Shown here: positions 1,214 through 36,804 of the stretch, one piece after another
How positions within the stretch are numbered: position 1 is the first letter of the stretch
Layout: every line of letters begins with the position of its first letter
Assembly: GCA_030750865.1 (NCBI GenBank)
Contig: JASMHE010000001.1
Span: 62,001-126,000, forward strand
Reading direction: 5' to 3'
Origin: Alphaproteobacteria bacterium
GTDB taxonomy: Bacteria > Pseudomonadota > Alphaproteobacteria > Micavibrionales > Micavibrionaceae
DNA: 64,000 bases
Translations under genes and position numbers: made by a program
Notes under the pieces: model-generated
What the model saw: the letters and a program-made list of their open reading frames with translations, nothing else
Told to the model about the DNA's origin: nothing
The model's database searches: none

Positions 1214-1225
1214 TTGATACGCCCC

Positions 1226-1888
1226 ATGCCCGACATGCCCGACCCGACTGATTCCACCACCCCCGCAAATGCCACTTATGCCGCCGTTCCGCCGCTTATT
1301 CTGGCCTCGGCCAGCATGACGCGCAAACAGATGCTGGACCGCGCAGGTCTGCGCTTTGCGATCAAGCCTGCCGATATTGACGAAACCGATATAACGCACA
1401 ATATGCAGCAAAGAGGGGAAAGCCATTATTCAATTGTTTCAATGCTTTCCATGAAAAAAGCGCATCATATTGCAGGGCAAAACCCCGATGCGCTGGTCAT
1501 CGGATCAGACCAGATTCTGGTGCATGATAACCGCATTCTGCACAAATCCCCCGACAGGGAATCCGCCGCGCAAAAACTGCGGAACCTGATGGGTAAAACG
1601 CACCATCTGATTTCCGCCGTCACGGTCATGCGGGGCGATGATGTATTATGGTCGCATACGGAATCGGCCGCGCTGACAATGCGCACCCTTGATGATGCCA
1701 CGCTTGAATCCTATCTTGATCGCGCAGGGGCGGGCCTGATGCGATCCGTCGGTGCCTATGAACTCGAAGGACACGGCGCATGGCTGTTTGAAAAAGTCGA
1801 CGGCGATTTCTTTACCATTCTCGGCATGCCGCTTTTACCGCTGTTGGGCTTTTTGGGCACGGACTATATGGCAACAAGCACGGACTAA
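1226..1888 (+). CDS. maf: Maf-family nucleoside triphosphate pyrophosphatase (YceF-like)
   Basis: House-cleaning pyrophosphatase that hydrolyses non-canonical or methylated NTPs to NMPs. The N-terminal signature LILASASMTRKQML holds the Ser and Arg that grip the phosphates. The VIGSDQ motif holds the catalytic Asp, and GSDQ rather than GADT points to the YceF (m7GTP) subgroup. The gene follows ppsR almost without a gap. A TTG at 1214 and an ATG at 1235 are alternative starts; ATG 1226 was chosen as a compromise because no clear Shine-Dalgarno decides. aroE follows 23 bases downstream, so ppsR-maf-aroE is probably one transcript. Confidence 0.88.
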   Translation: MPDMPDPTDSTTPANATYAAVPPLILASASMTRKQMLDRAGLRFAIKPADIDETDITHNMQQRGESHYSIVSMLSMKKAHHIAGQNPDALVIGSDQILVHDNRILHKSPDRESAAQKLRNLMGKTHHLISAVTVMRGDDVLWSHTESAALTMRTLDDATLESYLDRAGAGLMRSVGAYELEGHGAWLFEKVDGDFFTILGMPLLPLLGFLGTDYMATSTD

Positions 1889-1911
1889 CATAAAAACGGG
1901 ACGGATTTGAC

Positions 1912-2778
1912 ATGCAAGACAGTTTTATCAAAGCAGGCGTTATCGGTTATCCGGTGAAACATTCCAAATCGCCGTTGTTGCACGAACACTGGATAACCCG
2001 CCATCAAAAACAAGGCGCTTATAACGCAATCGAAGTGCCGCCGGAAAAGCTTGAAAATATGGTGCAGGATTTGATCGATCGCGGCTATGCGGGGTTCAAC
2101 ATCACCTTGCCGCACAAACAGACAATCATGCATCTTTGCACCGATATTGACGATACGGCCCGCGCCGTCGGGGCGGTCAACACCGTTATCATCGAAGACG
2201 GCCGTTTATATGGCCGCAATACCGATGTTTTCGGCTTTCTTGAAAATATCCGCGCCGCCCATCCCGATTTTGCGTTTACCGGTATTCATGCCCTTGTGCT
2301 GGGGGCTGGGGGCGCGGCGCGCGCTGTCATTTACGGTTTGATTGACGCGGGTGCAAAGCAGATCACGATTACAAACCGCACCCGTGCAAAGGCCGACGAT
2401 ATCGCCGCAAGCTTTGCCGATCTGGCCGCGCAGCATGACTGCCGCCTTAGCGTGCTGGACTGGGACGACAGGGACTCCGGCGATGCGGGCGCGGCGCCCG
2501 CTGAAACAGACCTGCTGGTCAACACAACATCGCTTGGCATGACAGGCAAGCCGTCTTTGTCTTATGATGTGAATGCGCTTCCGTCATCGGCAATGGTGTG
2601 CGATATTGTTTATGCGCCGCTTTATACGGATTTGCTCAGCGATGCCCGTGCGCGCGGATTGCGCATCACGACCGGCATCGGCATGTTGTTGCATCAGGCA
2701 AAGCCGGCCTTTGCGGCGTGGTTCGGTGTGATGCCGGATGTTGACGATCTGCTGGAACAGAAGATACTGAAGGCATAA
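1912..2778 (+). CDS. aroE: Shikimate dehydrogenase
   Basis: NADPH-dependent reduction of 3-dehydroshikimate in aromatic amino acid synthesis. Substrate-binding S-K-S-P (residues 18-21), the catalytic-lysine motif NITLPHK (Lys69), GAVNTV, the dinucleotide-binding LGAGGAARAV and NTTSLGM are all present. The length of 288 residues is normal. It lies in the ppsR-maf-aroE-coaE order found near alphaproteobacterial origins. Confidence 0.96.
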   Translation: MQDSFIKAGVIGYPVKHSKSPLLHEHWITRHQKQGAYNAIEVPPEKLENMVQDLIDRGYAGFNITLPHKQTIMHLCTDIDDTARAVGAVNTVIIEDGRLYGRNTDVFGFLENIRAAHPDFAFTGIHALVLGAGGAARAVIYGLIDAGAKQITITNRTRAKADDIAASFADLAAQHDCRLSVLDWDDRDSGDAGAAPAETDLLVNTTSLGMTGKPSLSYDVNALPSSAMVCDIVYAPLYTDLLSDARARGLRITTGIGMLLHQAKPAFAAWFGVMPDVDDLLEQKILKA

Positions 2779-2903
2779 CAGCAAAAATAAACACGCCACA
2801 ACCGCAGCATAAACACATTTGCCGTACAGATAACGACACAAACAGCAACCCGCGCAGGGAAAAGAACAGATAGAATATAAAGGAATAAAGGAGACCCGCA
2901 ATC

Positions 2904-3563
2904 ATGGCACATCCCGTTATTATCGGTCTGACAGGCTCGATCGCTATGGGCAAAAGCACCGCAGCCGATATGTTGCGGAATATGGGCATTCCCGTTCATT
3001 GTTCGGATGATGCGGCCCATGACATTATGGCCAAAGGGGGTGCGGGCTATCACGCTATTCTGGCCGCGTTTTCAGATGTTGAAAATCTGCTGGATGATGC
3101 CGGCGAGATTGACCGCAAAGGGGCGCTTGGCCCGTTTATTTATACCCATCCCGAGCGCAAAACACAGCTCGAAGATATCATCCATCCGCTTGTGCGCGAT
3201 GCCCAGCAGGATTTCATCCGCAATGCAGGGCAAAAAGGCGCTGATATTGTCGTGCTCGATATTCCGCTTTTATTCGAAACAGGGGCGGAAAACCGCATGG
3301 ATGGCGTGATTTGCGTGACAGCCCCCGCCCACATCCAGCGCCAGCGCGTTTTCGCCCGCGATAACACCCATATGACCGAAGAAAAATTCCAAAAGATTCT
3401 GGCCGCACAAATGCCCGATGCCGAAAAACGGCAATTATCCGATTATGTGGTATCAACCGCACTGGGTCTGGGGGATACGCGCAAGCAACTTGAAACCGTT
3501 ATCAAAGACATTCGCGCCAATATTAATGTGATCCGCAATGCGCCCAAGCTTGACCATCACTGA
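2904..3563 (+). CDS. coaE: Dephospho-CoA kinase
   Basis: Catalyses the last step of coenzyme A synthesis, phosphorylating the 3'-hydroxyl of dephospho-CoA. The P-loop GSIAMGKST is at residues 11-19, followed by the family's C-S-D-D stretch and DIPLLFETG. Length is 219 residues. A good Shine-Dalgarno (AAAGGAGA, from about 2886) precedes the ATG. The 125 bp before it is A/C-rich spacer with no gene. Confidence 0.95.
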   Translation: MAHPVIIGLTGSIAMGKSTAADMLRNMGIPVHCSDDAAHDIMAKGGAGYHAILAAFSDVENLLDDAGEIDRKGALGPFIYTHPERKTQLEDIIHPLVRDAQQDFIRNAGQKGADIVVLDIPLLFETGAENRMDGVICVTAPAHIQRQRVFARDNTHMTEEKFQKILAAQMPDAEKRQLSDYVVSTALGLGDTRKQLETVIKDIRANINVIRNAPKLDHH

Positions 3564-3664
3564 ACGCACGGCGCAGCGCGGCGCGATAACACCGCATCTT
3601 CACCGCCGCACGGCAAGACACGACGACATAAACCAACCCCTAACCCCGTTCTTGTTCTGACATT

Positions 3665-4315
3665 ATGCCTGATCCTGCTTTTGATAATTTTACAGCCAAT
3701 TTCCTGCTATTTTGTGTTGTCATGTTCGGTGCCAGCCTGTTCCCCGGCCCTTCATTTCTGCTGACATTTCGAAATGGGTTGAAATATTCATCCCGCATCG
3801 GTATTGCCGGTGCTATCGGGCTTGGTTTCGGGCTTTTACCGAACGTGCTGGCTTCTATTCTGGGGGTGGCCGCCCTGATCCATTCATCGGATATGCTGTA
3901 TGATCTGGTGCGCTATGCGGGGGCGGCATTTTTGATGCTGCTCGGCATACAGAGCCTGTTTTTTGCCCATGCAAAAACGGCGGCTAAAATGCCGGCCCTG
4001 AAACATGAACGGCAACCCGATCCGTCCTTGAAACGCGCCTTTATCGAAGGATTTTTAACAAACGCCACCAATCCCAAAGGCATTTTGTTTTTTGTGGCTG
4101 TTTTCACGCAATTTGTCACCGCAGAAACGGTTTTGTGGCAAAAAGCCGCCTATGGCACGGCCAGTTTTCTGATCGAAATGATATGGTTTTGCTGTCTTAC
4201 CCTGATACTACACCATCCGGCCCTTGATAAATTTACGGCCTTTTTCATGAAATATATTGACCGTCTATGCGGTTTCCTGTTTTTCTGTCTTGCTCTTAAA
4301 TTACTGATTGCGTAA
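3665..4315 (+). CDS. LysE/RhtB-family amino acid exporter
   Basis: Inner-membrane protein of 216 residues with about six hydrophobic segments. The N-terminal FGASLFPGPSFLLTFRNGL is the LysE/RhtB signature (a P-G-P motif in the first helix region). The family exports amino acids or derivatives by proton antiport; the substrate cannot be read from the sequence. It sits between coaE and a glutamine amidotransferase and is an addition to the usual ancestral order. Confidence 0.88.
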   Translation: MPDPAFDNFTANFLLFCVVMFGASLFPGPSFLLTFRNGLKYSSRIGIAGAIGLGFGLLPNVLASILGVAALIHSSDMLYDLVRYAGAAFLMLLGIQSLFFAHAKTAAKMPALKHERQPDPSLKRAFIEGFLTNATNPKGILFFVAVFTQFVTAETVLWQKAAYGTASFLIEMIWFCCLTLILHHPALDKFTAFFMKYIDRLCGFLFFCLALKLLIA

Positions 4316-4403
4316 ACAAATAAATAACCTTCAATCCGTAATATATAAAAACAAAACAATAAGAACAGGCCGATAAGGCCGCATGTAATAGAGGAACAAC
4401 CGC

Positions 4404-5117
4404 ATGAAAGTTACTGTCTTCCAGCACAATAGCACAGGCGCTGCAAGCCGTATCGGTGACCTTCTGGAAAAGAAAGGCGCCACGGTTAACGCTATTCATT
4501 GCTATCACGAGGATTTTTCCGATTTCGACCCGTACGAACCCGACCTTCTGATCAGCATGGGCGGACCGGCCGGTGTGTATCAATCCCATCTCTATCCGTT
4601 TTTGGACGAGGAACTGAAATTCCTTGAAAAACGGATCGAAGCCGACCTGCCGACACTGGGCATCTGCCTCGGCGCACAGCTGCTTGCGAAAACACTGGGC
4701 GCGGAATGCTTTATCGGCACGCGCGGCTTTGAATTCGGCTGGCATGACCTACGCGTCACCAAACAAGGCATGTTAACACCGATCAAACATTTCAGCGGCG
4801 CGGAAACCAGCATGTTCCATTCGCACAGCGACACATTTGACTTACCGGCAGGGGCAACCTTGCTGGCCTCGTCCGCGCTGTATGAAAACCAGATTTTCAG
4901 CTACGGCAAAAATATTCTGGCGATGCAATGCCATCCCGAAATGACCGAACGTCAGGTCCACAACCTGCTGGTCAACATGGCCGGACACAGCACCGTGATC
5001 GAAGCCTTTGATGTCAAGAAATTCAAACGCGAAATGACAACGAATTATCCCAAGCTGGTCAAACAAACAGAGCTTTTCCTGCAGGATTGGCTTGAACTGA
5101 CGGGGCTGGCATCCTAA
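4404..5117 (+). CDS. Class I glutamine amidotransferase-like protein (stand-alone)
   Basis: A 237-residue stand-alone class I GATase domain of the GMP-synthase/YfeJ type. The triad is visible: the nucleophile Cys in GICLGAQLLAK, then His and Glu in QCHPEMTE. Such proteins take ammonia from glutamine or act as gamma-glutamyl hydrolases; no partner synthetase is adjacent, so the substrate is unknown. GAGGAA lies 9-14 bases before the ATG. It ends 9 bases before dnaQ and is likely co-transcribed with it. Confidence 0.85.
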   Translation: MKVTVFQHNSTGAASRIGDLLEKKGATVNAIHCYHEDFSDFDPYEPDLLISMGGPAGVYQSHLYPFLDEELKFLEKRIEADLPTLGICLGAQLLAKTLGAECFIGTRGFEFGWHDLRVTKQGMLTPIKHFSGAETSMFHSHSDTFDLPAGATLLASSALYENQIFSYGKNILAMQCHPEMTERQVHNLLVNMAGHSTVIEAFDVKKFKREMTTNYPKLVKQTELFLQDWLELTGLAS

Positions 5118-5126
5118 ACTTCTCCC

Positions 5127-5852
5127 ATGCGCGAGATTGTATTCGATACGGAAACAACCGGTATGGATCCGGAAACAGGCGACCGATTGGTTGAAATCGG
5201 CTGTGTTGAAGTCGTCAACCAGTTGCCGACGGGCCGTACATATCATCAATATATCAATCCCGAACGCGATATTCCCGCCGATGCCATAGCCGTGCACGGC
5301 ATTACCAACGAGTTTGTGAAAGACAAACCTGTCTTTTCGCAGGTCTATAGCGATTTTCTCGACTTCATCGGCACAGACAGCAAGTTGGTGGCGCATAACG
5401 CCGAATTCGATATGAAATTCGTCAATGCCGAACTGAAAATGGTCGGATTCCCCAGCATTGACCGCAAACGGGTTGTTGACAGTCTGAAAATCGCGCGGCA
5501 AAAATTCCCCGGCGCGCCCGCATCGCTTGATGCGCTGTGCCGTCGCTTTGAAATCGACCTCAGCAGCCGTGAACTGCACGGCGCGCTTTTGGATGCCCAG
5601 CTTCTGGCCGATGTTTATCTGGAACTGATGGGCGGGCGGCAACACGGTCTTGGTCTGGCCAAAGAACAGGAAGAAAACGCGAAAAATGTTCTGGGCGCAC
5701 TGGCTGAAAAACAGCGTCCACAGCGTGATCCGCGCCCGCACGCCGCCACAGACGAAGAACTCGCAGCCCATGCCGCCCTGTGCGAAAAACTGACCGAACC
5801 GCTTTGGGGCATCGCAGACGCAAAAAAGGCAAAAACAGAGTCTGCGGATTAA
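5127..5852 (+). CDS. dnaQ: DNA polymerase III epsilon subunit (3'-5' proofreading exonuclease)
   Basis: Proofreading subunit of the replicative polymerase core. All three exonuclease motifs are intact: Exo I FDTETTGM (Asp7, Glu9), Exo II HNAEFD (Asp95), Exo III H151-x4-D156, which makes it a DEDDh enzyme. The tail after residue 170 is charged and Gln/Glu-rich and presumably binds the alpha subunit. Length is 241 residues. Its place between coaE and secB matches other Alphaproteobacteria. Confidence 0.96.
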   Translation: MREIVFDTETTGMDPETGDRLVEIGCVEVVNQLPTGRTYHQYINPERDIPADAIAVHGITNEFVKDKPVFSQVYSDFLDFIGTDSKLVAHNAEFDMKFVNAELKMVGFPSIDRKRVVDSLKIARQKFPGAPASLDALCRRFEIDLSSRELHGALLDAQLLADVYLELMGGRQHGLGLAKEQEENAKNVLGALAEKQRPQRDPRPHAATDEELAAHAALCEKLTEPLWGIADAKKAKTESAD

Positions 5853-5978
5853 GGGCTTGTTTTCTCACAATTTCTATAGGATTATAGGGGATCAGGGCAT
5901 CGTGAATATGTCCTATCATAAGGTTCTTTTAAAGCTTTTCTGCTATGATTTAAGGATAATACATCAAGGGGCACAATA

Positions 5979-6797
5979 ATGAAAAACAAGATGACACGCA
6001 CAACTTGCAACGAATCCGGCTTCTCCCTCGTGGAATTGGCCGTCGTTATCATCATCATCGGTCTGTTGATTGGCGGCGTTCTGAAGGGACAGCAGCTGAT
6101 TGAAGGCACGAAAGTGACAGCCACAATCACGGAAATCAAAAACATTCAGGCCGCGTATAAAGCGTTCAAAAGCGCCTACGGTCTTCCCGCAGGGGATCTG
6201 CCCGATGCCACCGTGCGTCTTGCTAACTGTAGTGCCGGCGCAACATCCTGCGAAGACGGCAATGGTGACGGCATTATCGGCGGTGCCGGTGTCGGCGCAG
6301 CCGCAGGGGCGGGCATTGTCAATTTCTGGGAAGGTGACAATTTCGCAATCGGTGACGAGAATACGCAATTCTGGAAACATCTGTCGCTGGCCGGCATGAT
6401 CACGGGCGTTCAGGCCAATGCCGATCTGGTCGCATGGGGTGAAAGTCACCCTGCCTCCAGTATTCGCGGCGGCTACACCATTGCGCAGACACGCTGTGCG
6501 GTTGACGGCGCCGTTGGCGGTGCAACATGTAACGCCAGCCCCGAAGGTTTGACACTGCGTCTGCAAAACTGTCTTGATACATGCCCCGGCAATAATATCG
6601 AGATGGGCATCGGCCGCGCACCAATGAGCCCGAAACAAGCCGAAATGATTGACGCCAAAATGGATGACGGCATCCCGAATATGGGCAAGGTGCGCTCTAT
6701 GGGACCAGGGAATGGCGGCGTTGTCGATCAGTGCGAGGTCGAATATAACGGCGGCGAAAGTAAAGACTGTACAATGGGCTTTATCACACCGCGCTAA
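5979..6797 (+). CDS. Type IV prepilin / type II pseudopilin-like protein
   Basis: Residues about 10-35 form a class III signal: a basic leader, the cleavage site G|FSLVELAVV with the conserved Glu at +5, then a long hydrophobic helix. Prepilin peptidase would cleave and N-methylate it for assembly into a pilus or pseudopilus. The 272-residue protein has a large Gly/Ala-rich C-terminal head with several cysteines and an acidic DGNGDGII loop (about residue 90) that resembles a calcium-binding loop. GGGG lies about 10 bases before the ATG. No pilus assembly genes are nearby; it interrupts the usual dnaQ-secB adjacency. Confidence 0.85.
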   Translation: MKNKMTRTTCNESGFSLVELAVVIIIIGLLIGGVLKGQQLIEGTKVTATITEIKNIQAAYKAFKSAYGLPAGDLPDATVRLANCSAGATSCEDGNGDGIIGGAGVGAAAGAGIVNFWEGDNFAIGDENTQFWKHLSLAGMITGVQANADLVAWGESHPASSIRGGYTIAQTRCAVDGAVGGATCNASPEGLTLRLQNCLDTCPGNNIEMGIGRAPMSPKQAEMIDAKMDDGIPNMGKVRSMGPGNGGVVDQCEVEYNGGESKDCTMGFITPR

Positions 6798-6867
6798 TAT
6801 AAACGGCGTAATGGCTGTCCGCTCTGACGGGCGGGCTCACCGCGCCCTTCAATCTCTCTAATCACGA

Positions 6868-6901
6868 AAAAAGCGCCACAGATTTGTGGCGCTTTGTTTT
6901 T
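6868..6901. terminator. Bidirectional intrinsic terminator between the prepilin gene and secB
   Basis: An 11-bp perfect stem (AAAGCGCCACA at 6870-6880 pairing with TGTGGCGCTTT at 6885-6895), a 4-base loop, a T-rich run on the right and an A-run on the left. It can end both the plus-strand prepilin transcript and the minus-strand secB transcript. Confidence 0.9.
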
Positions 6902-6932
6902 GTCTGTAATTCCATGAACGGATCAGAATGGC

Positions 6933-7577
6933 TTATCCCGCGTTTTGTGCGGCGGCGCTCTCGTCTTGTTCGCCTTGCTGGGCCTGCTGCGCTTTGCGCT
7001 GTTTATACAGGTTCACAAAATTGACCGGTGCCAGATAAAGCGGCGTGAAGCCCGATTGCGCTGTCAATGTGGCAATCAGCTGTCTGATGAACGGGAAGGA
7101 ATAGCGCGGCAATTCCGTCAGCAAGAACTGCTCCAGCTCTTCTTCCGACAATGTGTCCGGCTCTGAAATAATACAGCTTGTGCCATGTTGCAATTCAATC
7201 AGGAATACCAGATTGTCTTCGCGCTTGGCGGTCACCTTCACCATTGTCACAACTTCGTAAAAAGCGCGGCCCTCTTTTTCGCTCAGCTTTCGATACGCCA
7301 AACCGAAATTCACATTCAGCTCGGGCTGTTTTTGGCCCGGCATGATCGACAAAGGCGCGCGCGGGCTTTCAAACGATAAATCCTTGATATATTGCCCCTG
7401 AATAACAGCAGGAAAGTCATGCGGTGTATCGCCGCCATGCAACGGACCGGATGCTGTTTCGTCAGATGCGGCTTTATCAGATGCGACAGCCGCATCCTGT
7501 GCGGCCTTGTCTTCTGTTGTCTGCGCTTCGACTTTGCTGTTGTCTGTGCTTGTGTCGTCTTTTTTCTTCTTCGCCAT
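6933..7577 (-). CDS. secB: Protein-export chaperone SecB with long N-terminal extension
   Basis: Tetrameric cytosolic chaperone that keeps preproteins unfolded and hands them to SecA. The core starts with GQYIKDLSFESPRAP, continues with ELNVNF and ends with the typical F-x3-LIA-x2-T-x3-GF and LAPVNFVNLY. The total of 214 residues exceeds the usual 150-165: about 60 residues of Lys, Asp, Ala and Thr-rich, probably disordered sequence precede the core. AGAGG lies 8 bases upstream of the ATG and supports the long form. Converges with the prepilin gene. Confidence 0.94.
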   Translation of the reverse strand: MAKKKKDDTSTDNSKVEAQTTEDKAAQDAAVASDKAASDETASGPLHGGDTPHDFPAVIQGQYIKDLSFESPRAPLSIMPGQKQPELNVNFGLAYRKLSEKEGRAFYEVVTMVKVTAKREDNLVFLIELQHGTSCIISEPDTLSEEELEQFLLTELPRYSFPFIRQLIATLTAQSGFTPLYLAPVNFVNLYKQRKAQQAQQGEQDESAAAQNAG

Positions 7578-7684
7578 AGGGCAACCTCTGTTATGTCATG
7601 TTGTCGTGGTTATATGCGGTGTATCCCGCTGAAATGCTCGGAAAAGTATTCATGATCGCGGCCCTGATCTCAAGGCTGTTTTCC

Positions 7685-8203
7685 CTATTCCAGCAGATCA
7701 TCCCCTTTTTTCTCGGATTTGTCTGCTTTGCGGTCACGGTCAACGACCTCGTAATCAACGTCGATCGGATCATCACCCGCCGGATCCTGCTTGAAATAAT
7801 CGCGCGGATTGCGACGCCCCTCGCCTTCTGCGCCATATGCCCCGCCGAAAAAGCGGATCTGGATGTGATGCAGGGCAAAACCGCGCAACACGGCCCGTAT
7901 CGGTGGCACAAGCAGAATAAACCCAACCGTATCTGTGAAAAAACCGGGCGTAATCAGCATCAAACCGGCCACCAACAAACACACCCCGTCAAACATCTCC
8001 TGTACAGGCAGATCATGCTGTTCCATCGCTTTTCTGGCTGAAAACAGGGTTTCCAGCCCCTGATACCGCACCAATACAGACCCGACCACAGCTGTTGCAA
8101 AACACAGTAACAACGTGTTCAGCACCCCGACTTCCTCGCCGACGGAAATAAATAAACCGATCTCGATTAACGGTATAATAAGGAATATAATGAAGAATAA
8201 CAT
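7685..8203 (-). CDS. fxsA: FxsA family membrane protein
   Basis: Small inner-membrane protein with hydrophobic segments at the N-terminus (FFIIFLIIPLIEIGLFI) and at LLVAGLMLITPGFFTDTVGF; the latter is the FxsA signature (L-x2-PGF-x-TD-x2-G). E. coli FxsA relates to exclusion of phage T7; the ordinary role is unknown. A charged Asp/Glu/Lys-rich tail follows. A GTG at 8230 would add nine residues; ATG 8203 fits the family start better. Its neighbours secB and timA are conserved in the class. Confidence 0.88.
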   Translation of the reverse strand: MLFFIIFLIIPLIEIGLFISVGEEVGVLNTLLLCFATAVVGSVLVRYQGLETLFSARKAMEQHDLPVQEMFDGVCLLVAGLMLITPGFFTDTVGFILLVPPIRAVLRGFALHHIQIRFFGGAYGAEGEGRRNPRDYFKQDPAGDDPIDVDYEVVDRDRKADKSEKKGDDLLE

Positions 8204-8305
8204 AAGGGGCTCTTGATTTTTAAGGTTCACAGATAAAATACTATAGATCGTATAAGTATTATATATTACGATACATCTCAGATATCAAAGGGTAAAGGAA
8301 ACAAC

Positions 8306-9043
8306 GTGTCAGCAGATATTATACTTTATGCATTGGTCGCAGGCGGACTGGTTTACTGGCTGAAAAGCATTCTCGGTGAACGGCACGGCGAAGAGAACGA
8401 TCGCCCGAACCCCTTTACCAACATCAAAGAAGAAACGGAAAAGCGCGCTGCGCCATCATCACCGCACGGGAACGTCGTTGATAACGTCACCCCTGTCGAA
8501 GAAGTCGGTCCGTCTCTTGAAAAACACATGAAAATCGAACATACCGCCGAAAAAGGGCTGGATGCCATTGCGCGAATTGACCGCAATTTCGCCGCAGACA
8601 AATTTATGAAGGCCGCCCAGAACGCCTTTACAATCATTATCGAGTCTTTCGGCGAAGGCGACCGCGACACATTGAAACATTTGCTGAGCCCGAATGTCTT
8701 CAAAGCCTTTGAAAAAGCCATTACCCAGCGGGACAAACAAAACCAGACCGCCGAGGTCGAGGTACAAGCCATTCGTGAAATGGATATGCTGGATGCATGG
8801 ACCGAAAGCAAGATGGGCTTTATCAAAGTGCGTTTTGTAGCCGATGAAACAAACGTGTTGAAAGATGAAAACGGTAAAATTCTCGAAGGCAGCGCCAACC
8901 GCGCCTCTGAAACCGTTGATGTCTGGACGTTCGGCCGTGATCTGCGCAGCAATAATCCGGCATGGCTTGTTTATGAAACACGCGATGATGATGCCGCCGA
9001 CAGCGATCACAAAACCGTTCCCGATACCAAGAAAAAGAAATAA
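8306..9043 (+). CDS. timA: Tim44/TimA family membrane-anchored adaptor protein
   Basis: Alphaproteobacterial homologue of the mitochondrial import motor anchor Tim44. One N-terminal transmembrane segment (about residues 3-19), a charged linker, then the Tim44-like domain (about 95-225; DKFMKAAQNAFTIIIESF through RSNNPAWLVYETRDD). GTG start with AAAGGAA 5-11 bases upstream. Divergent from fxsA; mltA follows. The class often has an smr gene after mltA; none is seen here. Confidence 0.9.
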   Translation: MSADIILYALVAGGLVYWLKSILGERHGEENDRPNPFTNIKEETEKRAAPSSPHGNVVDNVTPVEEVGPSLEKHMKIEHTAEKGLDAIARIDRNFAADKFMKAAQNAFTIIIESFGEGDRDTLKHLLSPNVFKAFEKAITQRDKQNQTAEVEVQAIREMDMLDAWTESKMGFIKVRFVADETNVLKDENGKILEGSANRASETVDVWTFGRDLRSNNPAWLVYETRDDDAADSDHKTVPDTKKKK

Positions 9044-9220
9044 CGCACAGCACCTGCCAATAGATTCTCTGCAATGCTTGTCCATTTTGCCCCTGCGGTA
9101 AAAGACAACCCTACATGCCGTCACGACAAATATCAGGATACGTTTCTATCGTGGCTTGTCCGGCCGCGACAAACCTTTTAAATTCATAATATGACCGTTC
9201 ACTTTCATCAGGATATGACC

Positions 9221-10465
9221 ATGCCGCGTTCTCTCTTCCCTTTCTGTGCCGATATTGCCTTTACCCCACTCAAACATGTGTCACTTTGCTTGCTTGTTTT
9301 GCTGTGTGCGGCATGTGGTCATGTCAGCGAAGATGTTGATGAACAGCCGCTTGTGTTGAAAAAGGCCTCTTTCGGACAATTACCGGACTGGGACAAAGAC
9401 AATCATCAAGCCTTTTTGGCCGCGCTGGAAAAATCATGTGACCGCATTGTCAAAAAACCCGCCACCGCATCACTTGGGGCTGACGGCTTTGCCGGCACAT
9501 ATGGCGACTGGCAACCGGTATGCCGTCTTGTGAATGACGGGCAGGTTACAGATGCCAAAGCCTTTGTCGAAATGCATTTCACACCGTGGAAAGCCGCCGC
9601 TGCAGGGGCAGGCGACACAGGCCTGTTTACCGGATATTACGAACCGTCACTGCGCGGCGCGCATATTAAAACAGGCCCATATCAATATCCACTGCGGGCT
9701 TTGCCAGATGATCTGGTGATGGTTGATCTCGGCCAGTTCCGCGATGATTTGAAAGGCCGCCGTATTGCCGGCCGCGTCAATGGCAGCCGCCTGCGCCCCT
9801 ACGAAGATCGCGCCGCCATTACGGCCGGGGGCTTGCCCGCCGCACAGGACAACCCGATCGTCTGGGTCGATAGTCCCGTTGATGCCTTTTTCCTGCATAT
9901 TCAGGGGTCCGGCCGCGTTCTTTTGCCGGACGGCAGTGATCTGCGTGTCGGGTATGCCGGTCAGAACGGTCACCCTTACTATGCCATCGGACGCGAGCTA
10001 ATCGCGCGCGGCCATCTTGAACAGGACGAGGTGTCATTGCAAACAATCCGCGCCTGGCTCGAAGCAAACCCCGATCAAGCCAATGACATCATGTTTACAA
10101 ACCGCTCATATGTCTTTTTCCGCGAACTGGACACAGGCGGGCCGCTCGGCGGGGAAGGGGTGATCTTAACCCCCGAACGCTCACTGGCTGTTGACCGCTC
10201 CAAAATTCCATACGGCATTCCGCTGTGGGTTGATATCAAACCGCCAACCGAAAACGAAGCGCCGCTGCGCCGTTTGATGGTTGCGCAGGATACGGGCGGC
10301 GCTATTCGCGGCGCGGTGCGCGGTGATGTATTCTGGGGCTATGGCGATCGCGCCGAATATATGGCCGGACACATGAAATCCGAAGGGCGTTACTGGCTGT
10401 TATTGCCAAAAGCGGTGGACCCGCATCTCGCGAGCAGCGGCGACACAAAGATTGCCGCCCGTTAA
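9221..10465 (+). CDS. mltA: Membrane-bound lytic murein transglycosylase A (lipoprotein)
   Basis: Outer-membrane lipoprotein that cleaves peptidoglycan between MurNAc and GlcNAc to 1,6-anhydro products. The lipobox L-C-A-A-C lies about 32 residues after the chosen start. MltA-domain motifs include GLFTGYYEPSLRG, FFLHIQGSGRV and MFTNRSYVFF. The 3D domain has AQDTGGAIRG and GDVFWG, whose Asp corresponds to the catalytic Asp of E. coli MltA. ATG 9221 is preferred because an AGGA sits 8 bases upstream; ATG 9191 and 9215 are in frame. Confidence 0.93.
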   Translation: MPRSLFPFCADIAFTPLKHVSLCLLVLLCAACGHVSEDVDEQPLVLKKASFGQLPDWDKDNHQAFLAALEKSCDRIVKKPATASLGADGFAGTYGDWQPVCRLVNDGQVTDAKAFVEMHFTPWKAAAAGAGDTGLFTGYYEPSLRGAHIKTGPYQYPLRALPDDLVMVDLGQFRDDLKGRRIAGRVNGSRLRPYEDRAAITAGGLPAAQDNPIVWVDSPVDAFFLHIQGSGRVLLPDGSDLRVGYAGQNGHPYYAIGRELIARGHLEQDEVSLQTIRAWLEANPDQANDIMFTNRSYVFFRELDTGGPLGGEGVILTPERSLAVDRSKIPYGIPLWVDIKPPTENEAPLRRLMVAQDTGGAIRGAVRGDVFWGYGDRAEYMAGHMKSEGRYWLLLPKAVDPHLASSGDTKIAAR

Positions 10466-10910
10466 CGCGCCCGTCATTCCACATTCCATCTGTAACACCG
10501 GCCGCCATCACCACCGATCCTCCTTTTCGGCCTTCATCCCCGGTCTTCATCCTCGGCCCTTATCTTCAGTCCTTATCTTCAGCCTTCACGCCAGAGAACA
10601 GCGGCTGAAACCCGTTCGACGCATCCAAACACTCTGCCGCCCCATGCCCCCATGAAAAACGCCTTATAAAAAGCGCCCTATAATGAGACGACCATAAAGA
10701 GGCGACAGGGACAGATCGCAACACGGCCCCATATATTAATCATGTATCAATCCGGTAACACGCCACCGCCGATTATAAACGTCGCCCCGCTCATGCCTCC
10801 CCTATCCATCCTTGCCGCACGCCGCTATACCGGCCATGACACCCGCAACATCCCGCGCGGCCATGAAAACACCCGTCCATAGCCATACTCCATAGCCATA
10901 CCGCGCATAA
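10466..10910. other. Gene-free stretch after mltA
   Basis: No convincing gene. The plus strand is strikingly C-rich and G-poor (29 C against 9 G in bases 10501-10560). It contains the five-unit 13-bp array listed separately. Small ORFs here have compositions dictated by the repeats and I do not support them. Confidence 0.6.
10528..10592. repeat. Degenerate 13-bp tandem array, five units
   Basis: Five head-to-tail 13-mers beginning C-G-G or C-A-G and centred on CTTCAT/CTTATC: 10528-10540, 10541-10553, 10554-10566, 10567-10579 and 10580-10592. Neighbouring units differ at a few positions only. No function can be read from it. Confidence 0.8.
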
Positions 10911-11897: not shown

Positions 11898-13004
11898 TCA
11901 TACATCAGACCAGTTTTCACGCATTTCCCCATGCGGGAAAATCTTTTGCGCCAGATCACGGTTGCGGAACGGCACGTCATTTACGCGCGTCACTTTCAGA
12001 TCGTAAATAATCTGGAACAAATGCGCCTGATTGATCGGATCATTCAATCCGGCAAAATAAGGATCGCGGCGAATGCGGCCGCCCAAGCCTTCCAGATAAA
12101 TCACGCCGCCCGGCAAACGGGACAAATCCTCGATCCGGTCTTTGGTCAGAACAGAATCCCCGAACGGGCTTTCACCATCGCGGGATAAAATCAGATCATC
12201 CAGCATTTCCAGTGTTTCGTGGTCACACGCATCAACACGCTGGTCGTCTTCATGCCAGACACGAAATGCCTGTGCCAGCGCACGCCCGTCAAATAATGCG
12301 CGCGGATCGCGTTCCAGATAATGTGAAAAGGCCAGCGCCATATCGCCTTCTTCGGTGCCGATAATGTGACGCCAAATGTCGGAAAATCCTTCGCCGCGCA
12401 ATTCCCATGCAACCAGAACGGCGAATGTGTCACAATCGGCCGCGCGCACGCGTTCCAACAGCAATACTTCTTCCGCGCCAAACTCCAGCGCCGTGGCGGC
12501 AAAACGGTTTTCATGCCACAAATCGCGCATGGCCCGTACCATATTCAACAGCAAATCATTGCGGAAAAAGGCCGAATGCCCCAGCGATGTTGCCGTCATT
12601 GCATAATTATCAAGTGTAATAATGTGATTGTCCGTATCGATGTGATAGCCGTTATTGTGCAGACTTTCAGTGACAATCGCCCAATCTTCTTTCAAAATGG
12701 CTTTTGCAATCAAACGTGCTGATGGTGATTTACCAAGCACAGCCGCAACCCATGCAAAAACATCTTCATCTGTACGAAAATCAAATGGCTGCGTATTAAT
12801 CTGTTCGACGCTGATATCATCATCGCCATCAAACATTGCTGTCAAAAGCAGGGCATCATCCGCATCGGCGCGATGGTCTGCCAGCGATTCCGTCAGATCG
12901 AAATAGGATTTTGTATCAGCGGCGCTGTCCGCACCGGTTGCAACCCCGCGACGGGCCTGCAACGCTTTGTCTGATATTGTCCGTGACTTCCAGCCTGATT
13001 TCAT
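11898..13004 (-). CDS. DUF6782-like protein with degenerate metallopeptidase motif (paralogue 2 of pair)
   Basis: 368 residues. The centre reads RNDLLLNMVRAMRDLWHEN, then LLLERVRAADCDTFAVLVAWELRG. This layout recalls the DUF6782 putative metallopeptidase family, where a His-Glu-x2-His helix is followed by an R-x-EAD-A region and AWEL. The zinc helix here reads VRAMRDLW, so the metal ligands are absent. The start was set at 13004 because GGAGGT lies a few bases upstream and the preceding gene stops at 13021; an in-frame extension to 13265 would overlap that gene. Family name is from memory; the degenerate motif is seen directly. Confidence 0.7.
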   Translation of the reverse strand: MKSGWKSRTISDKALQARRGVATGADSAADTKSYFDLTESLADHRADADDALLLTAMFDGDDDISVEQINTQPFDFRTDEDVFAWVAAVLGKSPSARLIAKAILKEDWAIVTESLHNNGYHIDTDNHIITLDNYAMTATSLGHSAFFRNDLLLNMVRAMRDLWHENRFAATALEFGAEEVLLLERVRAADCDTFAVLVAWELRGEGFSDIWRHIIGTEEGDMALAFSHYLERDPRALFDGRALAQAFRVWHEDDQRVDACDHETLEMLDDLILSRDGESPFGDSVLTKDRIEDLSRLPGGVIYLEGLGGRIRRDPYFAGLNDPINQAHLFQIIYDLKVTRVNDVPFRNRDLAQKIFPHGEMRENWSDV

Positions 13005-13020
13005 CGTGTGACCTCCGGCA

Positions 13021-14310
13021 CTATCGCTGTTCTGAAACGCGGATTGCGCTTCTGAACTCTTGGAATGAGATAATATCGGCTTTGCGCTTTTTCCCGTTTT
13101 CGGACGGTTTTGACCCAAATTTTCTGTGAATTGATTTATGGTCGGCGTTTTGTCCGCTTTGCGGAAGCTGAATGACTTCTGATGTTTGTTCATGATTGCT
13201 AAACTTGCTTTTATTTGTGTTGATATTCTGGGCAGATTGATCCCCGCCCTTGTTGATATCTTCACGACCTTGCAAGTTGCGTTCCGCTTCGCTGAATGTG
13301 CGCTCGAATTTGATAAACCATAGGAAATTCGCGTTAGAGCGGTCCCTTACATCGGTAAAAACACTGTCGGCCATGATGGTCGATAAGTAAGGCGACAGGT
13401 AATTTTTGCCGTAAGGCATGCTGCCGAGTGCCTGAACAACATCGGATGCCACCTGACGTGATGTGTCTTCATCTTGGAACGAGAATGTATTCTGATGTGA
13501 AAGCATCGCCTGAATTAATGTGCGATCTTCTTGCTGACAACGGTTTGACAGGAACCATGCCTCGAAAGACGAGCTCATTGCATTGCCGTTATCCAGATTT
13601 CTGAAATCTGTGTGGGCATCGCGTGCCATTGCACGGGCCACATCCGACATAGAAGAATCTTCCAGACGAATCCAGACAGATTTATGCCCGGCCAGCTGTA
13701 ATTCCCAGCCAATCCGTACCGTCATCACAGCCAGATCGGCAATTTGTGCACGGTTCACCAAAATAGCGTGATCCGGATGGAATTTCAGCGGATCAATCAA
13801 CGCCCCTTCGCGGTGTTGCCAGACACGTCTTAATTCACGCGCTGTCAATAAAAGCTGGTCTTCGGCCGGCATATCCGGACGCACGAAAATTGTGTTTGCA
13901 CGGCGATCATAAACGCTGTCTTTAATCTGTTTGCTGAAAACAAGTGCCGTATCATGTGCTTCGGCGATATCCAGAAATGCGCCGGCCAAACGGCTTTTAC
14001 GCAGCGCCTCTGTCAGTTCTTCGATTTTTGTATAAGATCCCGCATGTGAAATCTGATTGCCGTGCGGCAATAATGCCGTAAACATATCAAAGGCAAATTC
14101 TTCCGTGCAATCATCTGTTTCAACAATATCTGCTTCTGCGCCGGATTGGTCGGCCGCAAGCAATGTAAATTCCGTACCTTCTTCTTCGAACTCTTCTTCA
14201 TAGTCCATATAGAATAATGGCTGGTCGCTGATAATCGTACAGATCACCGGCTGGTAATTGTTGATCGCGTAAGCCATGCGACATGAAGGTGTTAAAGTTG
14301 GTGTATCCAT
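13021..14310 (-). CDS. DUF6782-like protein with degenerate metallopeptidase motif (paralogue 1 of pair)
   Basis: 429 residues, first gene of a two-gene operon; the downstream paralogue begins 16 bases after its stop. The core EDQLLLTARELRRVWQHREG, then ILVNRAQIADLAVMTVRIGWEL, aligns with the neighbour and with the DUF6782 pattern. HExxH is replaced by RELRR, keeping one Glu. The N-terminus is acidic (FYMDYEEEFEEEG) and the last 100 residues are polar and probably disordered. GGGGAA precedes the ATG. Probably not an active protease. Function unknown. Confidence 0.7.
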   Translation of the reverse strand: MDTPTLTPSCRMAYAINNYQPVICTIISDQPLFYMDYEEEFEEEGTEFTLLAADQSGAEADIVETDDCTEEFAFDMFTALLPHGNQISHAGSYTKIEELTEALRKSRLAGAFLDIAEAHDTALVFSKQIKDSVYDRRANTIFVRPDMPAEDQLLLTARELRRVWQHREGALIDPLKFHPDHAILVNRAQIADLAVMTVRIGWELQLAGHKSVWIRLEDSSMSDVARAMARDAHTDFRNLDNGNAMSSSFEAWFLSNRCQQEDRTLIQAMLSHQNTFSFQDEDTSRQVASDVVQALGSMPYGKNYLSPYLSTIMADSVFTDVRDRSNANFLWFIKFERTFSEAERNLQGREDINKGGDQSAQNINTNKSKFSNHEQTSEVIQLPQSGQNADHKSIHRKFGSKPSENGKKRKADIISFQEFRSAIRVSEQR

Positions 14311-14769: not shown

Positions 14770-15396
14770 TTATTGGCCGAGCAAATCATCCATGACCGGA
14801 ATTTTTTCAATCAACAGCTCTTCGTTTTGCATCATGACCTGACCGGTTTTATCAACCTGTATATCGGCGCTGAATAATGACCCGCGATAAGCAAAACAAG
14901 CCGCCAGTGTAAAACCGCCATCTTTTTCGTCTGTCACCCGCAACGGTTCCAGCATATCGCCCAGCGCTTTGCGGCCCGCGGGCGTGGGATCATCTTTCCA
15001 TTTCATGTCATCGGACGATTCAACAATGATAAAACTGCCCTTTGCCCCTTTGACATACTGGAAAAAGAAACGGACATAAGCCGATACATTATGAACATCA
15101 ATATCAATCGGCAGCCGTTCGTTTAAAGCGTAAATCGGCGCGCTGGTCCAATCAAGAACGACAACATCTTTTTTCTTTTCGCTGAATAATACAATGCGCG
15201 TCACATACGGCACTTGTTCACGGTCTGTAATTTCCAGCAATTTATAGCCGGGGTAAAAAGACGGCTCATACGATAAAACCGTTGTTGTGTCGGCATTAAA
15301 ATCCTGCCCGTCCAGATGCGGATTGGCATGATCCAGTAAATCGCGTTTGCGTTTGCCTTCTGTTTTTTTGAATGCTTCTTTTGAAATTAAAGCCAT
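14770..15396 (-). CDS. Conserved-looking protein of unknown function next to the proposed origin
   Basis: 208 residues, no signal peptide or membrane segment. It begins ALISKEAFKKTEGKRKRDLL and alternates hydrophobic and charged stretches as in a soluble alpha/beta protein (VTRIVLFSEKKKDVVVLDWT, AYVRFFFQYVKGAKGSFIIV). It is the gene immediately left of the proposed oriC and reads away from it. I do not recognise the family; coding is supported by length and by composition typical of a folded protein. Confidence 0.65.
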   Translation of the reverse strand: MALISKEAFKKTEGKRKRDLLDHANPHLDGQDFNADTTTVLSYEPSFYPGYKLLEITDREQVPYVTRIVLFSEKKKDVVVLDWTSAPIYALNERLPIDIDVHNVSAYVRFFFQYVKGAKGSFIIVESSDDMKWKDDPTPAGRKALGDMLEPLRVTDEKDGGFTLAACFAYRGSLFSADIQVDKTGQVMMQNEELLIEKIPVMDDLLGQ

Positions 15397-16113
15397 GATT
15401 ATTCCTGTAACCGCTTCTATTTCCTACTTTTTAGCATATTTTGATGTGAAAGACAGCCCTAAATGGCAAAGACCGCATCACGCCGCGCCCACATAACCGA
15501 TCACAAAATACAAAGACGATAAAAAGATTTGAAGACCTGATAGCGGCATTTATCATGGAGCAATATATAAAAACATATCAGAACGGGCCGAATCGATTCG
15601 CATTATGCACCGTTTTTATACGAAAAAAGATCACCACAGCATGTGTGTATCCATGTGCGTAACTCTTGGTGAAAATATGGGGTAAGTGCCAAAGTCGAGT
15701 TATACAGATTCTGGTCTATTTTTTTAGACAGAGCTAATCCCTGTGTGTAACCGAAATACATTCTATACATATGGTTTTAGAACAAAGACGGGCGAATCGT
15801 GGGTTCATATTAGGTTTGGCAAAAATCGAATCTGTGAACGAATCTCTGTATAACTGTTAATCCCCGATTCCCACAGGACCAACTATCTACAAAAACCTTT
15901 TAAATAATTCTTTTTATTTTTATTGGGTGTGCTTAGATGGCGATCTTCGAATGATAGTCTGGCAATGAAAAAGGCTATTTCGAAATGGTAAAGAATTGGT
16001 TAAAACCGTGACAAAGACCTGCATGAAAATCCGTGCAGAACAGAAAACGGGAAATGTGTGAAAGCACAAGAAAACCAGATACGAGAAAATCAAACGTGAA
16101 ACGAGAGACGAAC
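15397..16113. other. oriC: Candidate origin of replication (oriC) upstream of hemE
   Basis: A 717-bp non-coding, AT-rich region. DnaA-box-like 9-mers differing by one base from TTATNCACA: TTATGCACC (15603-15611), TTATACAGA (15700-15708) and the same box inverted (15845-15853); a weaker one lies at 15644-15652. A very AT-rich tract (15892-15925) could be the unwinding element. TAAA-N7-TTAA at 15989-16003 is one base off a CtrA site. Caulobacter and Rickettsia place oriC next to hemE. Strand composition flips here. Inference from combined evidence; there is no perfect DnaA box. Confidence 0.65.
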
Positions 16114-17148
16114 ATGAAACCGATATTGGATGTTTTAAACGGTCACACACCTTCCGTGCCGCCGGTCTGGATGATGCGGCAAGCCGGTCGTTATCTGCCC
16201 GAATACATGGAACTACGCGGCAAAGCAGGCAGCTTTCTGGATCTGGTTTATAATCCGGATTTCGCGGCCGAAGTAACCATGCAACCCATCCGCCGTTTCG
16301 GAATGGATGCGGCAATCCTGTTTTCCGATATTCTGGTTATTCCCCAGGCGCTGGGACAGGGGCTTGCTTTCAAGGCGGGCGAAGGTCCGGTTTTGCCGCC
16401 TGTCCGTACATCCGAAGATTTTCAGGGATTTTATGATGTCGATATTCATAAAACGCTGTCACCGATTTACCAGACCATCAAAAATGTGCGCACGATGTTG
16501 CGTGATGAAGGCTACGATCAAACGGCGCTGATCGGGTTTGCCGGTGCGCCGTGGACAGTGGCGTGTTACATGGTCGAAGGACGCGGCAGCCGTGATTTTA
16601 TCAATACAAAACGCTGGGCTTACGCCGATCCAGACGGGTTTGATGCGTTGATCGATCTGGTCACACAGGCCACGGCCGATTATCTGATCGCGCAGGCCGA
16701 TGCAGGCGCCGAAGCGTTAAAGCTGTTTGACAGTTGGGCGGGTATTCTGGATGAAATGCTGTTTGAACGTTATGTGATTGGTCCTGCACAGAAGATTATG
16801 GCGGCGATCCGTGCCAAACATCCCGATATCCCGGTTATCGGTTTTCCGCGTGGCGGCGGGGTGATGTATCCGCGTTACGTGAGGCAAACAGGCGTCAGCG
16901 CCGTTGCGCTGGACCAGACATTGCCTGCGGACTGGGCGGCAGATCATGTACAAACGCTTTGTCCGGTGCAAGGCAATCTTGAACCGTTTTGTTTGCTGGC
17001 CGGTGGCACAGCGCTTGAAAAAGAAGTAAAACGTATTAAATCTGTGCTTGGCGAAGGGCCGTTTATTTTTAATCTCGGGCATGGCATACACAAGGAAACA
17101 CCGATCGCACATGTCGAAAAAATGTTGGACGTTCTGCGTGAAGATTAA
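16114..17148 (+). CDS. hemE: Uroporphyrinogen decarboxylase
   Basis: Decarboxylates uroporphyrinogen III to coproporphyrinogen III in heme synthesis. The signature P-x-WMMRQAGRYLPEY lies near the N-terminus and GFAGAPWTVACYMVEG in the middle. The start ATG 16114 gives 344 residues, the family norm; an in-frame ATG at 16033 would add 27 Lys/Arg-rich residues inside the proposed origin and is rejected. hemH follows 53 bases downstream, forming a heme operon next to oriC. Confidence 0.96.
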   Translation: MKPILDVLNGHTPSVPPVWMMRQAGRYLPEYMELRGKAGSFLDLVYNPDFAAEVTMQPIRRFGMDAAILFSDILVIPQALGQGLAFKAGEGPVLPPVRTSEDFQGFYDVDIHKTLSPIYQTIKNVRTMLRDEGYDQTALIGFAGAPWTVACYMVEGRGSRDFINTKRWAYADPDGFDALIDLVTQATADYLIAQADAGAEALKLFDSWAGILDEMLFERYVIGPAQKIMAAIRAKHPDIPVIGFPRGGGVMYPRYVRQTGVSAVALDQTLPADWAADHVQTLCPVQGNLEPFCLLAGGTALEKEVKRIKSVLGEGPFIFNLGHGIHKETPIAHVEKMLDVLRED

Positions 17149-29567: not shown

Positions 29568-30522
29568 TTCATCCCCGCACCCGCATATGAGTGATCGTGA
29601 TATAGACGGGATACTGACGGAGCGTGTCGCGATATGTGCTGATGCAGGTATTGCTGTTTCACGTGAAACAATGGCACAGCTTTTTCTGTATGAACAGCTT
29701 CTGATCAAGTGGCAGGCCGCCATTAATCTGGTGAGCCGCAAAACGATTGATGATGTCTGGCAGCGCCACATCCTCGATTCTTTACAGCTTTTAAAATATT
29801 TACCTCCTACCCCTGATGTTGATGCCGACACCAGTGCCGGAAATGAGGATGCGGACGTTATGACGTCCGCCGATGCCGTCGCGGAAACCGATAACACCGC
29901 ACCGGATAAAATTGTGCTGGCCGATATTGGCAGCGGTGCCGGATTTCCCGGTTTGGTGCTGGCGATTGCACGGCCGGATATTGCGGTGCATCTGATTGAA
30001 TCCGATCAGAAAAAATGTAGTTTCTTGCGCACTGTTTCACGTGAAACACGATGCACGAATGTCACAGTGCATACGGCGCGTATCGAGGCTGTTTTCAACA
30101 CAGAGGCCGTCGCGGAACCCGCAGATCAGGCGGCGAAAGCCAGTATCGGCGTTGCGGGTGATACGAAGACAGGTGACGTGACGCAGAAAGATATTGAGAC
30201 TGATGTACAGAGCGGCGCAGAGAAAAATGCCGCCGCACAGCGCGCAGGCGATACGGCCAGTGGCCCGCATGGCGAAGACGGCCCGTTTGTGCCTACGATT
30301 GTAACGGCCCGCGCGCTGGCTGCATTGGAAGATTTATGCGCTTACACCGCTCCGCTTTTGCGGGTCAATCCCGCATTATCAATGTTGCTGCTGAAAGGCA
30401 GGCAATGCGGCACGGAATTGGTGAATGCGGCCATGACATACGATATTATATCGGATATGCATGAGAGCCTGACAGATGAAGATGGCGTCATTTTGCACAT
30501 CAAATCATTCGAGCGCCGCTGA
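29560..30522 (+). CDS. rsmG: 16S rRNA (guanine(527)-N7)-methyltransferase RsmG with two insertions
   Basis: SAM-dependent methyltransferase modifying G527 of 16S rRNA. Core motifs are LINLVS-like [18 protein letters not shown], motif [12 protein letters not shown] and VTARALAAL. About 320 residues against the usual 205-220: one low-complexity Asp/Ala insert precedes motif I and a second of about 65 residues (Ala, Thr, Asp, Gly-rich) precedes VTARALA. GTG 29560 is preferred because GAGG lies about 9 bases upstream; it overlaps mnmG by 8 bases. Two parS sites lie within it. Confidence 0.93.
29655..29670. promoter_or_regulatory. parS: parS centromere site 2 (inside rsmG)
   Basis: Perfect TGTTTCACGTGAAACA, encoding Val-Ser-Arg-Glu-Thr in rsmG's frame near residue 33. 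About 1 kb before parA. Confidence 0.93.
30033..30048. promoter_or_regulatory. parS: parS centromere site 3 (inside rsmG)
   Basis: Third perfect TGTTTCACGTGAAACA, again encoding Val-Ser-Arg-Glu-Thr. It lies 378 bases after site 2 and about 60 bases before the large low-complexity insert of rsmG. Confidence 0.93.
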
Positions 30523-30638: not shown

Positions 30639-31496
30639 ATGTCCGGACAACGATCAATAACAGGATCAACATCGCAAGCGACGCCAAAAACGGGGAAAAT
30701 GCCGCGTATTTTGTCTGTTGCGAACCAAAAAGGCGGTGTTGGCAAGACAACGACAGCGGTGAATTTATCGACGGCGCTGGCCGCTGTGGGCAAAAAAGTG
30801 CTTTTGGTGGACCTTGATCCGCAGGGGAATGCCTCGACAGGGTTTGGTATTCGCCGCGCATCCCTGCATGCCAGCACATATGATGTTTTGTTCGGCGAAG
30901 CCGATATTCTGGATGTCGCGCAGGAAACAAAAGTGCCGCGTTTGAGCGTAGCCCCCTCTTCGGTGCATTTGTCCGGTGCCGAGATCGAGCTTGTGACCGA
31001 AGAACGCCGCGAATTCCGCCTGCGGGATGCGTTGCGCCGCCCGATGCCGTATGATTATGTGATTATTGATTGTCCCCCTTCTTTGAACTTATTGACGCTG
31101 AACGCGCTTGTTTGCACAGACTCGGTTGTTGTGCCGCTACAGTGCGAGTTTTTTGCGCTGGAGGGGCTGTCACAATTAACAAAGACGATCGAGCGCGTCC
31201 GCAAGGCGTATAACCCCGATTTATCAATCCACGGCGTGTTGCTGACGATGTTTGACCGCCGCAATAACTTGTCACGCATGGTTGCGGGTGATGTGCGGGA
31301 TTATTTTGGTGATGTCGTGTATGACACGGTCATTCCGCGTAATGTACGTGTCTCTGAAGCGCCGTCACACGGCCTTCCCGCGATTGTGTATGATATGAAC
31401 TGCCCCGGTGCGAAAGCCTATATTCATCTTGCGCGGGAAATTTTAAAACGTGAAAAAGTGATGCTGGCGGCGGAAACGCCGCGCGATGCGGCTTAA
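30639..31496 (+). CDS. parA: Chromosome partitioning ATPase ParA
   Basis: Deviant Walker A ATPase that moves ParB-parS complexes. KGGVGKTT is at residues 31-38 (signature Lys31), Walker A' and B include VDLDPQGNASTG and DYVIIDCPPSLN. 285 residues with about 20 extra polar residues at the N-terminus. AGGAGG lies 10 bases upstream of the ATG. Confidence 0.97.
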   Translation: MSGQRSITGSTSQATPKTGKMPRILSVANQKGGVGKTTTAVNLSTALAAVGKKVLLVDLDPQGNASTGFGIRRASLHASTYDVLFGEADILDVAQETKVPRLSVAPSSVHLSGAEIELVTEERREFRLRDALRRPMPYDYVIIDCPPSLNLLTLNALVCTDSVVVPLQCEFFALEGLSQLTKTIERVRKAYNPDLSIHGVLLTMFDRRNNLSRMVAGDVRDYFGDVVYDTVIPRNVRVSEAPSHGLPAIVYDMNCPGAKAYIHLAREILKREKVMLAAETPRDAA

Positions 31497-36611: not shown

Positions 36612-36804
36612 GCATCATTTTACCGTTATAACCGCAGATATATTACTGTATTTGCATGGTGTGTGAGGCGTGCGCGTGCCATGCGCGCGTGATGATCGTG
36701 TTACGGTGTATTGTGCGTGAGCGCGTTATGTTAAGAATTTGACTTCATATTTGTTTCCCGCTAATTTCAGAGCTTAAATCTTCATAGGGACAGGAGGGGT
36801 GATC

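What the first reader, a model, noticed from the sequence alone, without database searches (positions are those of the whole stretch)
15397..16113. Candidate oriC upstream of hemE, supported by DnaA-like boxes and a strand-composition flip
Three 8/9 DnaA-box matches, two of them the same TTATACAGA in inverted orientation, lie beside an AT-rich tract. Independent support: spacers left of here (2779-2903, 3564-3664, 10466-10900, 15470-15540) are A/C-rich, while spacers to the right (36612-36780, 42400-42600, 47600-47800) are G/T-rich. By hand count, 10501-10560 has 29 C and 9 G; 36661-36720 has 25 G and 11 C. The hemE-side origin and nearby parABS match Caulobacter.
Basis: partly seen in the sequence, partly recalled or inferred. 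Interest (0 to 1): 0.72.

Follow-up and report, generated by a model that had tools for sequence, protein, structure and literature searches.

The report
Chromosome replication origin beside hemE

Summary
The whole 155-kb contig (the window plus 91 kb of flanks) has a single V-shaped GC-skew minimum at window base 15,511, inside the proposed interval. The 717-bp gap is AT-rich and has five 8/9 DnaA-box matches where shuffles give about one. The likely core is 15,845-15,924: inverted DnaA-like box, two tandem weak boxes, short GC spacer, CTA-type repeats, then a T/A-rich tract. A profile built from 37 other family members, without this genus, finds this spot and no other in the genome (E 3e-16; next E 2.3). 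It matches 130 of 142 genomes of the order. In a class sample, 64 of 67 checked hits lie 27-369 bp upstream of hemE. Where hemE is missing or has moved, the core stays in the rho/coaE/maf neighbourhood, and in one clear case at the skew minimum, so it is not a hemE leader. dnaA is on another contig with no skew turn. This is an ordinary alphaproteobacterial oriC resembling a basal unwinding system, with DnaA-trios too irregular here to meet the published strict rule.

The parts
15397..16113 (.). oriC region: intergenic gap between the divergent genes 14770-15396 (-) and hemE (+)
   Evidence: 38.6% G+C against 51.0%; contains the GC-skew minimum 15,511; DnaA-like box enrichment
15831..15920 (+). 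conserved origin core (match to profile R1)
   Evidence: R1 built without this genome or its genus-mate: E 3e-16, 60 bits, next hit in the genome E 2.3
15845..15853 (-). DnaA-like box TTATACAGA at the head of the core; the family consensus near this place is TGTGNATAA, the reverse complement of TTATNCACA
15858..15866 (+). TAATCCCCG: weak DnaA box, resembling the Caulobacter W-box TCCCCA; ATCCCC nearly invariant in the family
   Evidence: W-box from PMC4285127
15867..15875 (+). ATTCCCACA: second tandem weak DnaA box (CACAG end conserved)
   Evidence: aligns with Bacillus AATCCACAGG
15876..15880 (+). short GC-rich spacer GGACC
15881..15897 (+). DnaA-trio-like tract AACTATCTACAAAAACC (CTA-T-CTA; not three in register)
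15898..15924 (+). T/A-rich tract (26 of 27 A/T), likely first-melted DNA (unwinding element)
   Evidence: read from sequence; T/A-rich at the same place in the relatives
15603..15611 (+). DnaA-like box TTATGCACC (8/9)
15654..15662 (-). DnaA-like box TTACGCACA (8/9)
15700..15708 (+). DnaA-like box TTATACAGA (8/9)
15742..15750 (-). DnaA-like box TTACACACA (8/9)
16114..17148 (+). hemE, uroporphyrinogen decarboxylase: right flank
   Evidence: PF01208, TIGR01464 387 bits, cut-off 303
14770..15396 (-). left flank gene, unknown family, conserved beside the origin in G001, G022, G051
   Evidence: no Pfam/NCBIfam match; tblastn 43-48% identity
26178..26193 (.). parS, perfect 16-mer
29655..29670 (.). 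parS, perfect 16-mer
30033..30048 (.). parS, perfect 16-mer
30639..31496 (+). parA
   Evidence: PF13614, PF01656
31817..32806 (+). parB
   Evidence: PF02195, PF17762, PF23552

Best explanation
This gap is the chromosomal replication origin (oriC) of a Micavibrio-like alphaproteobacterium. Inferred mechanism: DnaA binds the scattered weak boxes at 15,603-15,853 and the tandem weak boxes at 15,858-15,875, oligomerises rightwards across the short GC spacer onto one strand of the CTA-type repeat tract, and melts the adjacent T/A-rich tract at 15,898-15,924 so that the helicase can be loaded; two forks then leave, one to each side. Shown here by sequence: the position, the skew turn, the conserved order of the elements, and an intact dnaA. 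Inferred: DnaA binding, direction of melting, and bidirectional start.
For: Skew minimum at 15,511 with 95% range 14.0-16.5 kb over 155 kb. Unique profile hit at 15,831-15,920 from a model that excluded this genus. Core in 130 of 142 genomes of the order at E <= 0.1 and in 114 of 289 of the class at E <= 0.01; 64 of 67 checked class hits are 27-369 bp upstream of hemE on the same strand. In two single-contig relatives (2,458,610 and 2,481,983 bp) the local skew minimum lies within 0.5 kb of the same place, and in the first the sampled skew changes sign again near 1.0-1.25 Mb. Five 8/9 boxes against about one expected; 2.66 per family member against 0.70 expected. The core aligns with the B. 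tequilensis site TTATCCACAAATCCACAGGCCCTACTATTACTTCTACTA, which begins less than 100 bp past the end of its dnaA match. In G407, where hemE was not found, the core (95.6 kb) is at the skew change-point (96.0 kb), between rho and coaE-dnaQ. dnaA is intact with both DnaA domains.
Against: No perfect TTATCCACA anywhere in the window, so the boxes are all weak by consensus. The DnaA-trio run in the window is not three in register. No full CtrA site. The TA skew minimum is about 4 kb off. No replication data were available.
Confidence: 0.95

Rival explanations
1. The conserved block is a promoter or leader element of hemE, and the origin lies elsewhere nearby.
For: In the class sample the block is nearly always 27-369 bp upstream of hemE in one orientation.
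Against: The block is present in genomes where no hemE was found (G407, G260, G031) and away from hemE in G294 and G163; in G294 it sits in the maf-aroE-coaE/rho cluster. It resembles the Bacillus origin core beside dnaA. The skew minimum of this contig coincides with the gap.
Confidence: 0.03
2. The origin is upstream of ppsR, beyond the left edge of the window, since ppsR (COG1806) flanks the origin in Caulobacter.
For: COG1806 is an origin-flanking gene in Caulobacter and Rickettsia (PMC1914354).
Against: Skew is negative throughout the 62 kb left of the window and does not turn there; no core match there; ppsR's position is explained by a ~10-kb inversion relative to the same-genus G001.
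Confidence: 0.01
3. The origin is next to dnaA, as in many bacteria.
For: Common arrangement outside the Alphaproteobacteria (general knowledge).
Against: dnaA is on contig C9, whose cumulative skew falls steadily through all 70 kb; no core match there.
Confidence: 0.01

Closest known systems
Caulobacter crescentus Cori and Rickettsia prowazekii oriC (hemE-COG1806 origins)
   Same: Beside hemE; AT-rich gap of similar size with weak DnaA boxes; ATCCCC element like the Caulobacter W-box; parABS nearby
   Different: COG1806 (ppsR) is 14-15 kb away; no full CtrA TTAAN7TTAA site; three other genes lie next to the origin on the left
Basal unwinding system (BUS) of Bacillus subtilis type
   Same: Tandem DnaA boxes, short GC spacer, CTA repeats, T/A-rich tract, in that order; CACAGG and CTA blocks align directly with a Bacillus sequence
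   Different: Boxes weak; CTA repeats broken by a single base in this genome (CTA-T-CTA); not beside dnaA
Micavibrio aeruginosavorus ARL-13 chromosome (PMC3189940)
   Same: The paper reports two clear GC-skew transitions; its 2,481,983-bp length equals that of G051, whose record begins at hemE and whose local skew minimum is at the same core
   Different: The paper text found here does not name the origin sequence; the ppsR-mltA block runs in the opposite orientation

Membership tests
Bacterial chromosomal oriC (DnaA type) | Turn of strand composition at the site | tested here: met
   GC-skew minimum 15,511 over 155 kb
Bacterial chromosomal oriC (DnaA type) | Cluster of DnaA boxes above chance | tested here: met
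   Five 8/9 against 0.98 expected, 0 of 300 shuffles; no 9/9 box
Bacterial chromosomal oriC (DnaA type) | AT-rich unwinding region next to the boxes | tested here: met
   15,898-15,924 is 26 of 27 A/T by reading; gap 38.6% G+C
Bacterial chromosomal oriC (DnaA type) | Replication starts there; DnaA binds and melts it | not testable with these tools
   Needs sequencing of growing cells and purified DnaA
Alphaproteobacterial hemE-COG1806 origin | hemE flanks the gap | tested here: met
   hemE 16114-17148
Alphaproteobacterial hemE-COG1806 origin | COG1806 (ppsR) flanks the other side | tested here: not met
   ppsR at 254-1213, displaced by inserted genes and an inversion
Alphaproteobacterial hemE-COG1806 origin | CtrA sites TTAAN7TTAA | tested here: not met
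   None in 15397-16113 with spacers 6-8
Alphaproteobacterial hemE-COG1806 origin | IHF site | not tested
   No consensus scan was made
Basal unwinding system (BUS) | DnaA box (often tandem) followed within 16 bp by trios | tested here: inconclusive
   TAATCCCCG and ATTCCCACA each match TTATCCACA at 6 of 9 only; homologous by alignment with relatives that have better boxes
Basal unwinding system (BUS) | At least three trios in register (3'-NAN-5') | tested here: not met
   Longest run in the window is 1; 19 of 50 family members have 3 or more at the homologous place
Basal unwinding system (BUS) | DnaA-dependent strand separation | not testable with these tools
   Biochemical assay needed

The most novel reading that the evidence does not exclude
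The 90-bp core is an ancestral, directional origin-unwinding module of the Alphaproteobacteria with its own consensus (TGTGNATAA ... GGGATAA ... ATCCCC ... CACAGGCCCTACTA ... AAAACCTTTTTAAAAATA). It follows the origin even where hemE is lost or moved, and in some lineages, including this one, it works with DnaA-trios interrupted by single bases.
Probability: 0.5. Interest if true: 0.42.

Novelty: new member of a known kind. Interest (0 to 1): 0.28.

Why it matters
It fixes the origin of a little-studied Micavibrio-like lineage to within about 100 bp and supplies a profile that can locate origins in draft alphaproteobacterial genomes without needing hemE or a closed chromosome. The interrupted CTA repeats make it possible to test how much irregularity DnaA-trios can tolerate.

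Tried and rejected
A direct DNA search in the genus found only the genus-mate's core, so relatives were gathered through hemE. CtrA full sites: none. The dnaA contig as alternative origin: rejected. The hemE-leader rival was tested on genomes where core and hemE are apart; skew was informative only in G407, and flat or weak around the core in G294, G163 and G260. Literature searches for a published class-wide consensus of this core found none in the held library, which does not show that none exists; DoriC/Ori-Finder work has scanned many alphaproteobacterial origins for BUS elements (PMC8287927, PMC10225481).

Full report
Observation. The gap 15397-16113 lies between a leftward gene of unknown family (14770-15396) and hemE (16114-17148). 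It is 38.6% G+C in a 51.0% window. It holds five 8/9 matches to TTATNCACA, where dinucleotide shuffles give 0.98 on average and none of 300 gives five. There is no exact TTATCCACA or TTATACACA in the window.

Skew. The window is bases 62,001-126,000 of a 155,183-bp contig. Over the whole contig the cumulative GC skew has one clean V with its minimum at window 15,511; the change-point is 15,500 and a block bootstrap gives 14.0-16.5 kb. The TA skew is noisy and its minimum is at 19,248. dnaA is on another contig, which shows a steady fall of skew over 70 kb.

Core. The genus-mate G001 shares a block at 15,815-15,939. Upstream of hemE, 50 members of the family were lined up; nearly all show the same order of elements: a DnaA-like box on the minus strand (family consensus TGTGNATAA), GGGATAA, ATCCCC, CACAGG, CCTACTA, AAAACC and a T/A-rich tract. 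A sequence profile from 37 of them, leaving out this genome and G001, finds one place in this genome, 15,831-15,920, at E 3e-16, with the next match at E 2.3. It finds matches in 130 of 142 genomes of the order at E <= 0.1 (this set includes the 37 it was built from) and in 114 of 289 in a class-wide sample at E <= 0.01. Of 67 class hits for which hemE coordinates were listed, 64 lie 27-369 bp upstream of hemE on the same strand, median 74.

Not a hemE leader. In G407 no hemE was found; the core lies between rho and coaE-dnaQ, and the skew change-point (96.0 kb) is at the core (95.6 kb). In G294 the core is 914 kb from hemE, between maf-aroE-coaE and rho-mnmE. G260 and G031 also have the core without a hemE hit. 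Skew around the core was uninformative in G294, G163 and G260, so this argument rests on gene neighbourhood plus one clear skew case. Gene names in G407 and G294 were read from the translations by eye.

Mechanism. The order of elements matches the basal unwinding system: tandem DnaA boxes, short spacer, DnaA-trios, A/T-rich DNA (PMC8287927). The corresponding Bacillus tequilensis sequence, TTATCCACAAATCCACAGGCCCTACTATTACTTCTACTATT, lies just after dnaA and aligns block for block. In this genome the boxes are weak (TAATCCCCG, ATTCCCACA) and the CTA repeats are interrupted (CTA-T-CTA); the published rule of three trios in register is not met here, though it is in 19 of 50 family members. CTA/TTA triplets are still twice as frequent as expected at that place across the family (3.25 against 1.59). 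I therefore say that it works like a BUS, as an inference, and do not file it as a strict member. The ATCCCC element resembles the Caulobacter W-box TCCCCA (PMC4285127).

Relation to known origins. Caulobacter and Rickettsia origins lie between hemE and COG1806/ppsR (PMC1914354). Here ppsR is at 254-1213. In G001, G022 and G051 ppsR is next to the two DUF6782 genes, 4-5 kb from the origin, and the block ppsR to mltA runs the other way, so this genome carries a ~10-kb inversion. Two single-contig relatives (2,458,610 and 2,481,983 bp; the latter equals the published length of M. aeruginosavorus ARL-13, PMC3189940) have records beginning at hemE and local skew minima within 0.5 kb of the same core.

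Regulation. No full CtrA site is present. GANTC, the CcrM methylation site in Caulobacter (general knowledge), occurs 7 times in 717 bp against 2.5 in shuffles (28 of 2000 reach 7), and 184 times against 56 in the relatives; the genome encodes GcrA and one N6/N4 DNA methyltransferase. Methylation control of this origin is a reasonable guess, not shown.

Verdict. Both observation and interpretation stand. The site is an ordinary alphaproteobacterial oriC, now placed to about 80-100 bp. The added value is the class-wide core profile and its independence from hemE.

Noticed in passing
window 254-10465: Block ppsR-maf-aroE-coaE-...-dnaQ-...-mltA is inverted relative to the same-genus G001 and to G022/G051, so these genes run toward the origin here.
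   Followed up: partly
window 15590-15870: GANTC sites are enriched in the origin gap (7; 2.5 expected) and in 49 relatives (184; 56 expected); GcrA and an N6/N4 methyltransferase are encoded.
   Followed up: partly
L114:10085-10171 (G294), L126 (G163): Two genomes of one family carry the origin core far from hemE; in G294 it sits between maf-aroE-coaE and rho, as if hemE had moved away.
   Followed up: partly
L120:9602-9685 (G407): A genome without a detectable hemE keeps the core between rho and coaE, at its local skew change-point.
   Followed up: partly
window 11898-14310: Two neighbouring DUF6782 putative metallopeptidase genes sit beside the origin and are conserved there in relatives.
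   Followed up: no
window 14770-15396: Origin-flanking gene of unknown family, no Pfam or NCBIfam match, conserved at this place in the relatives checked.
   Followed up: no
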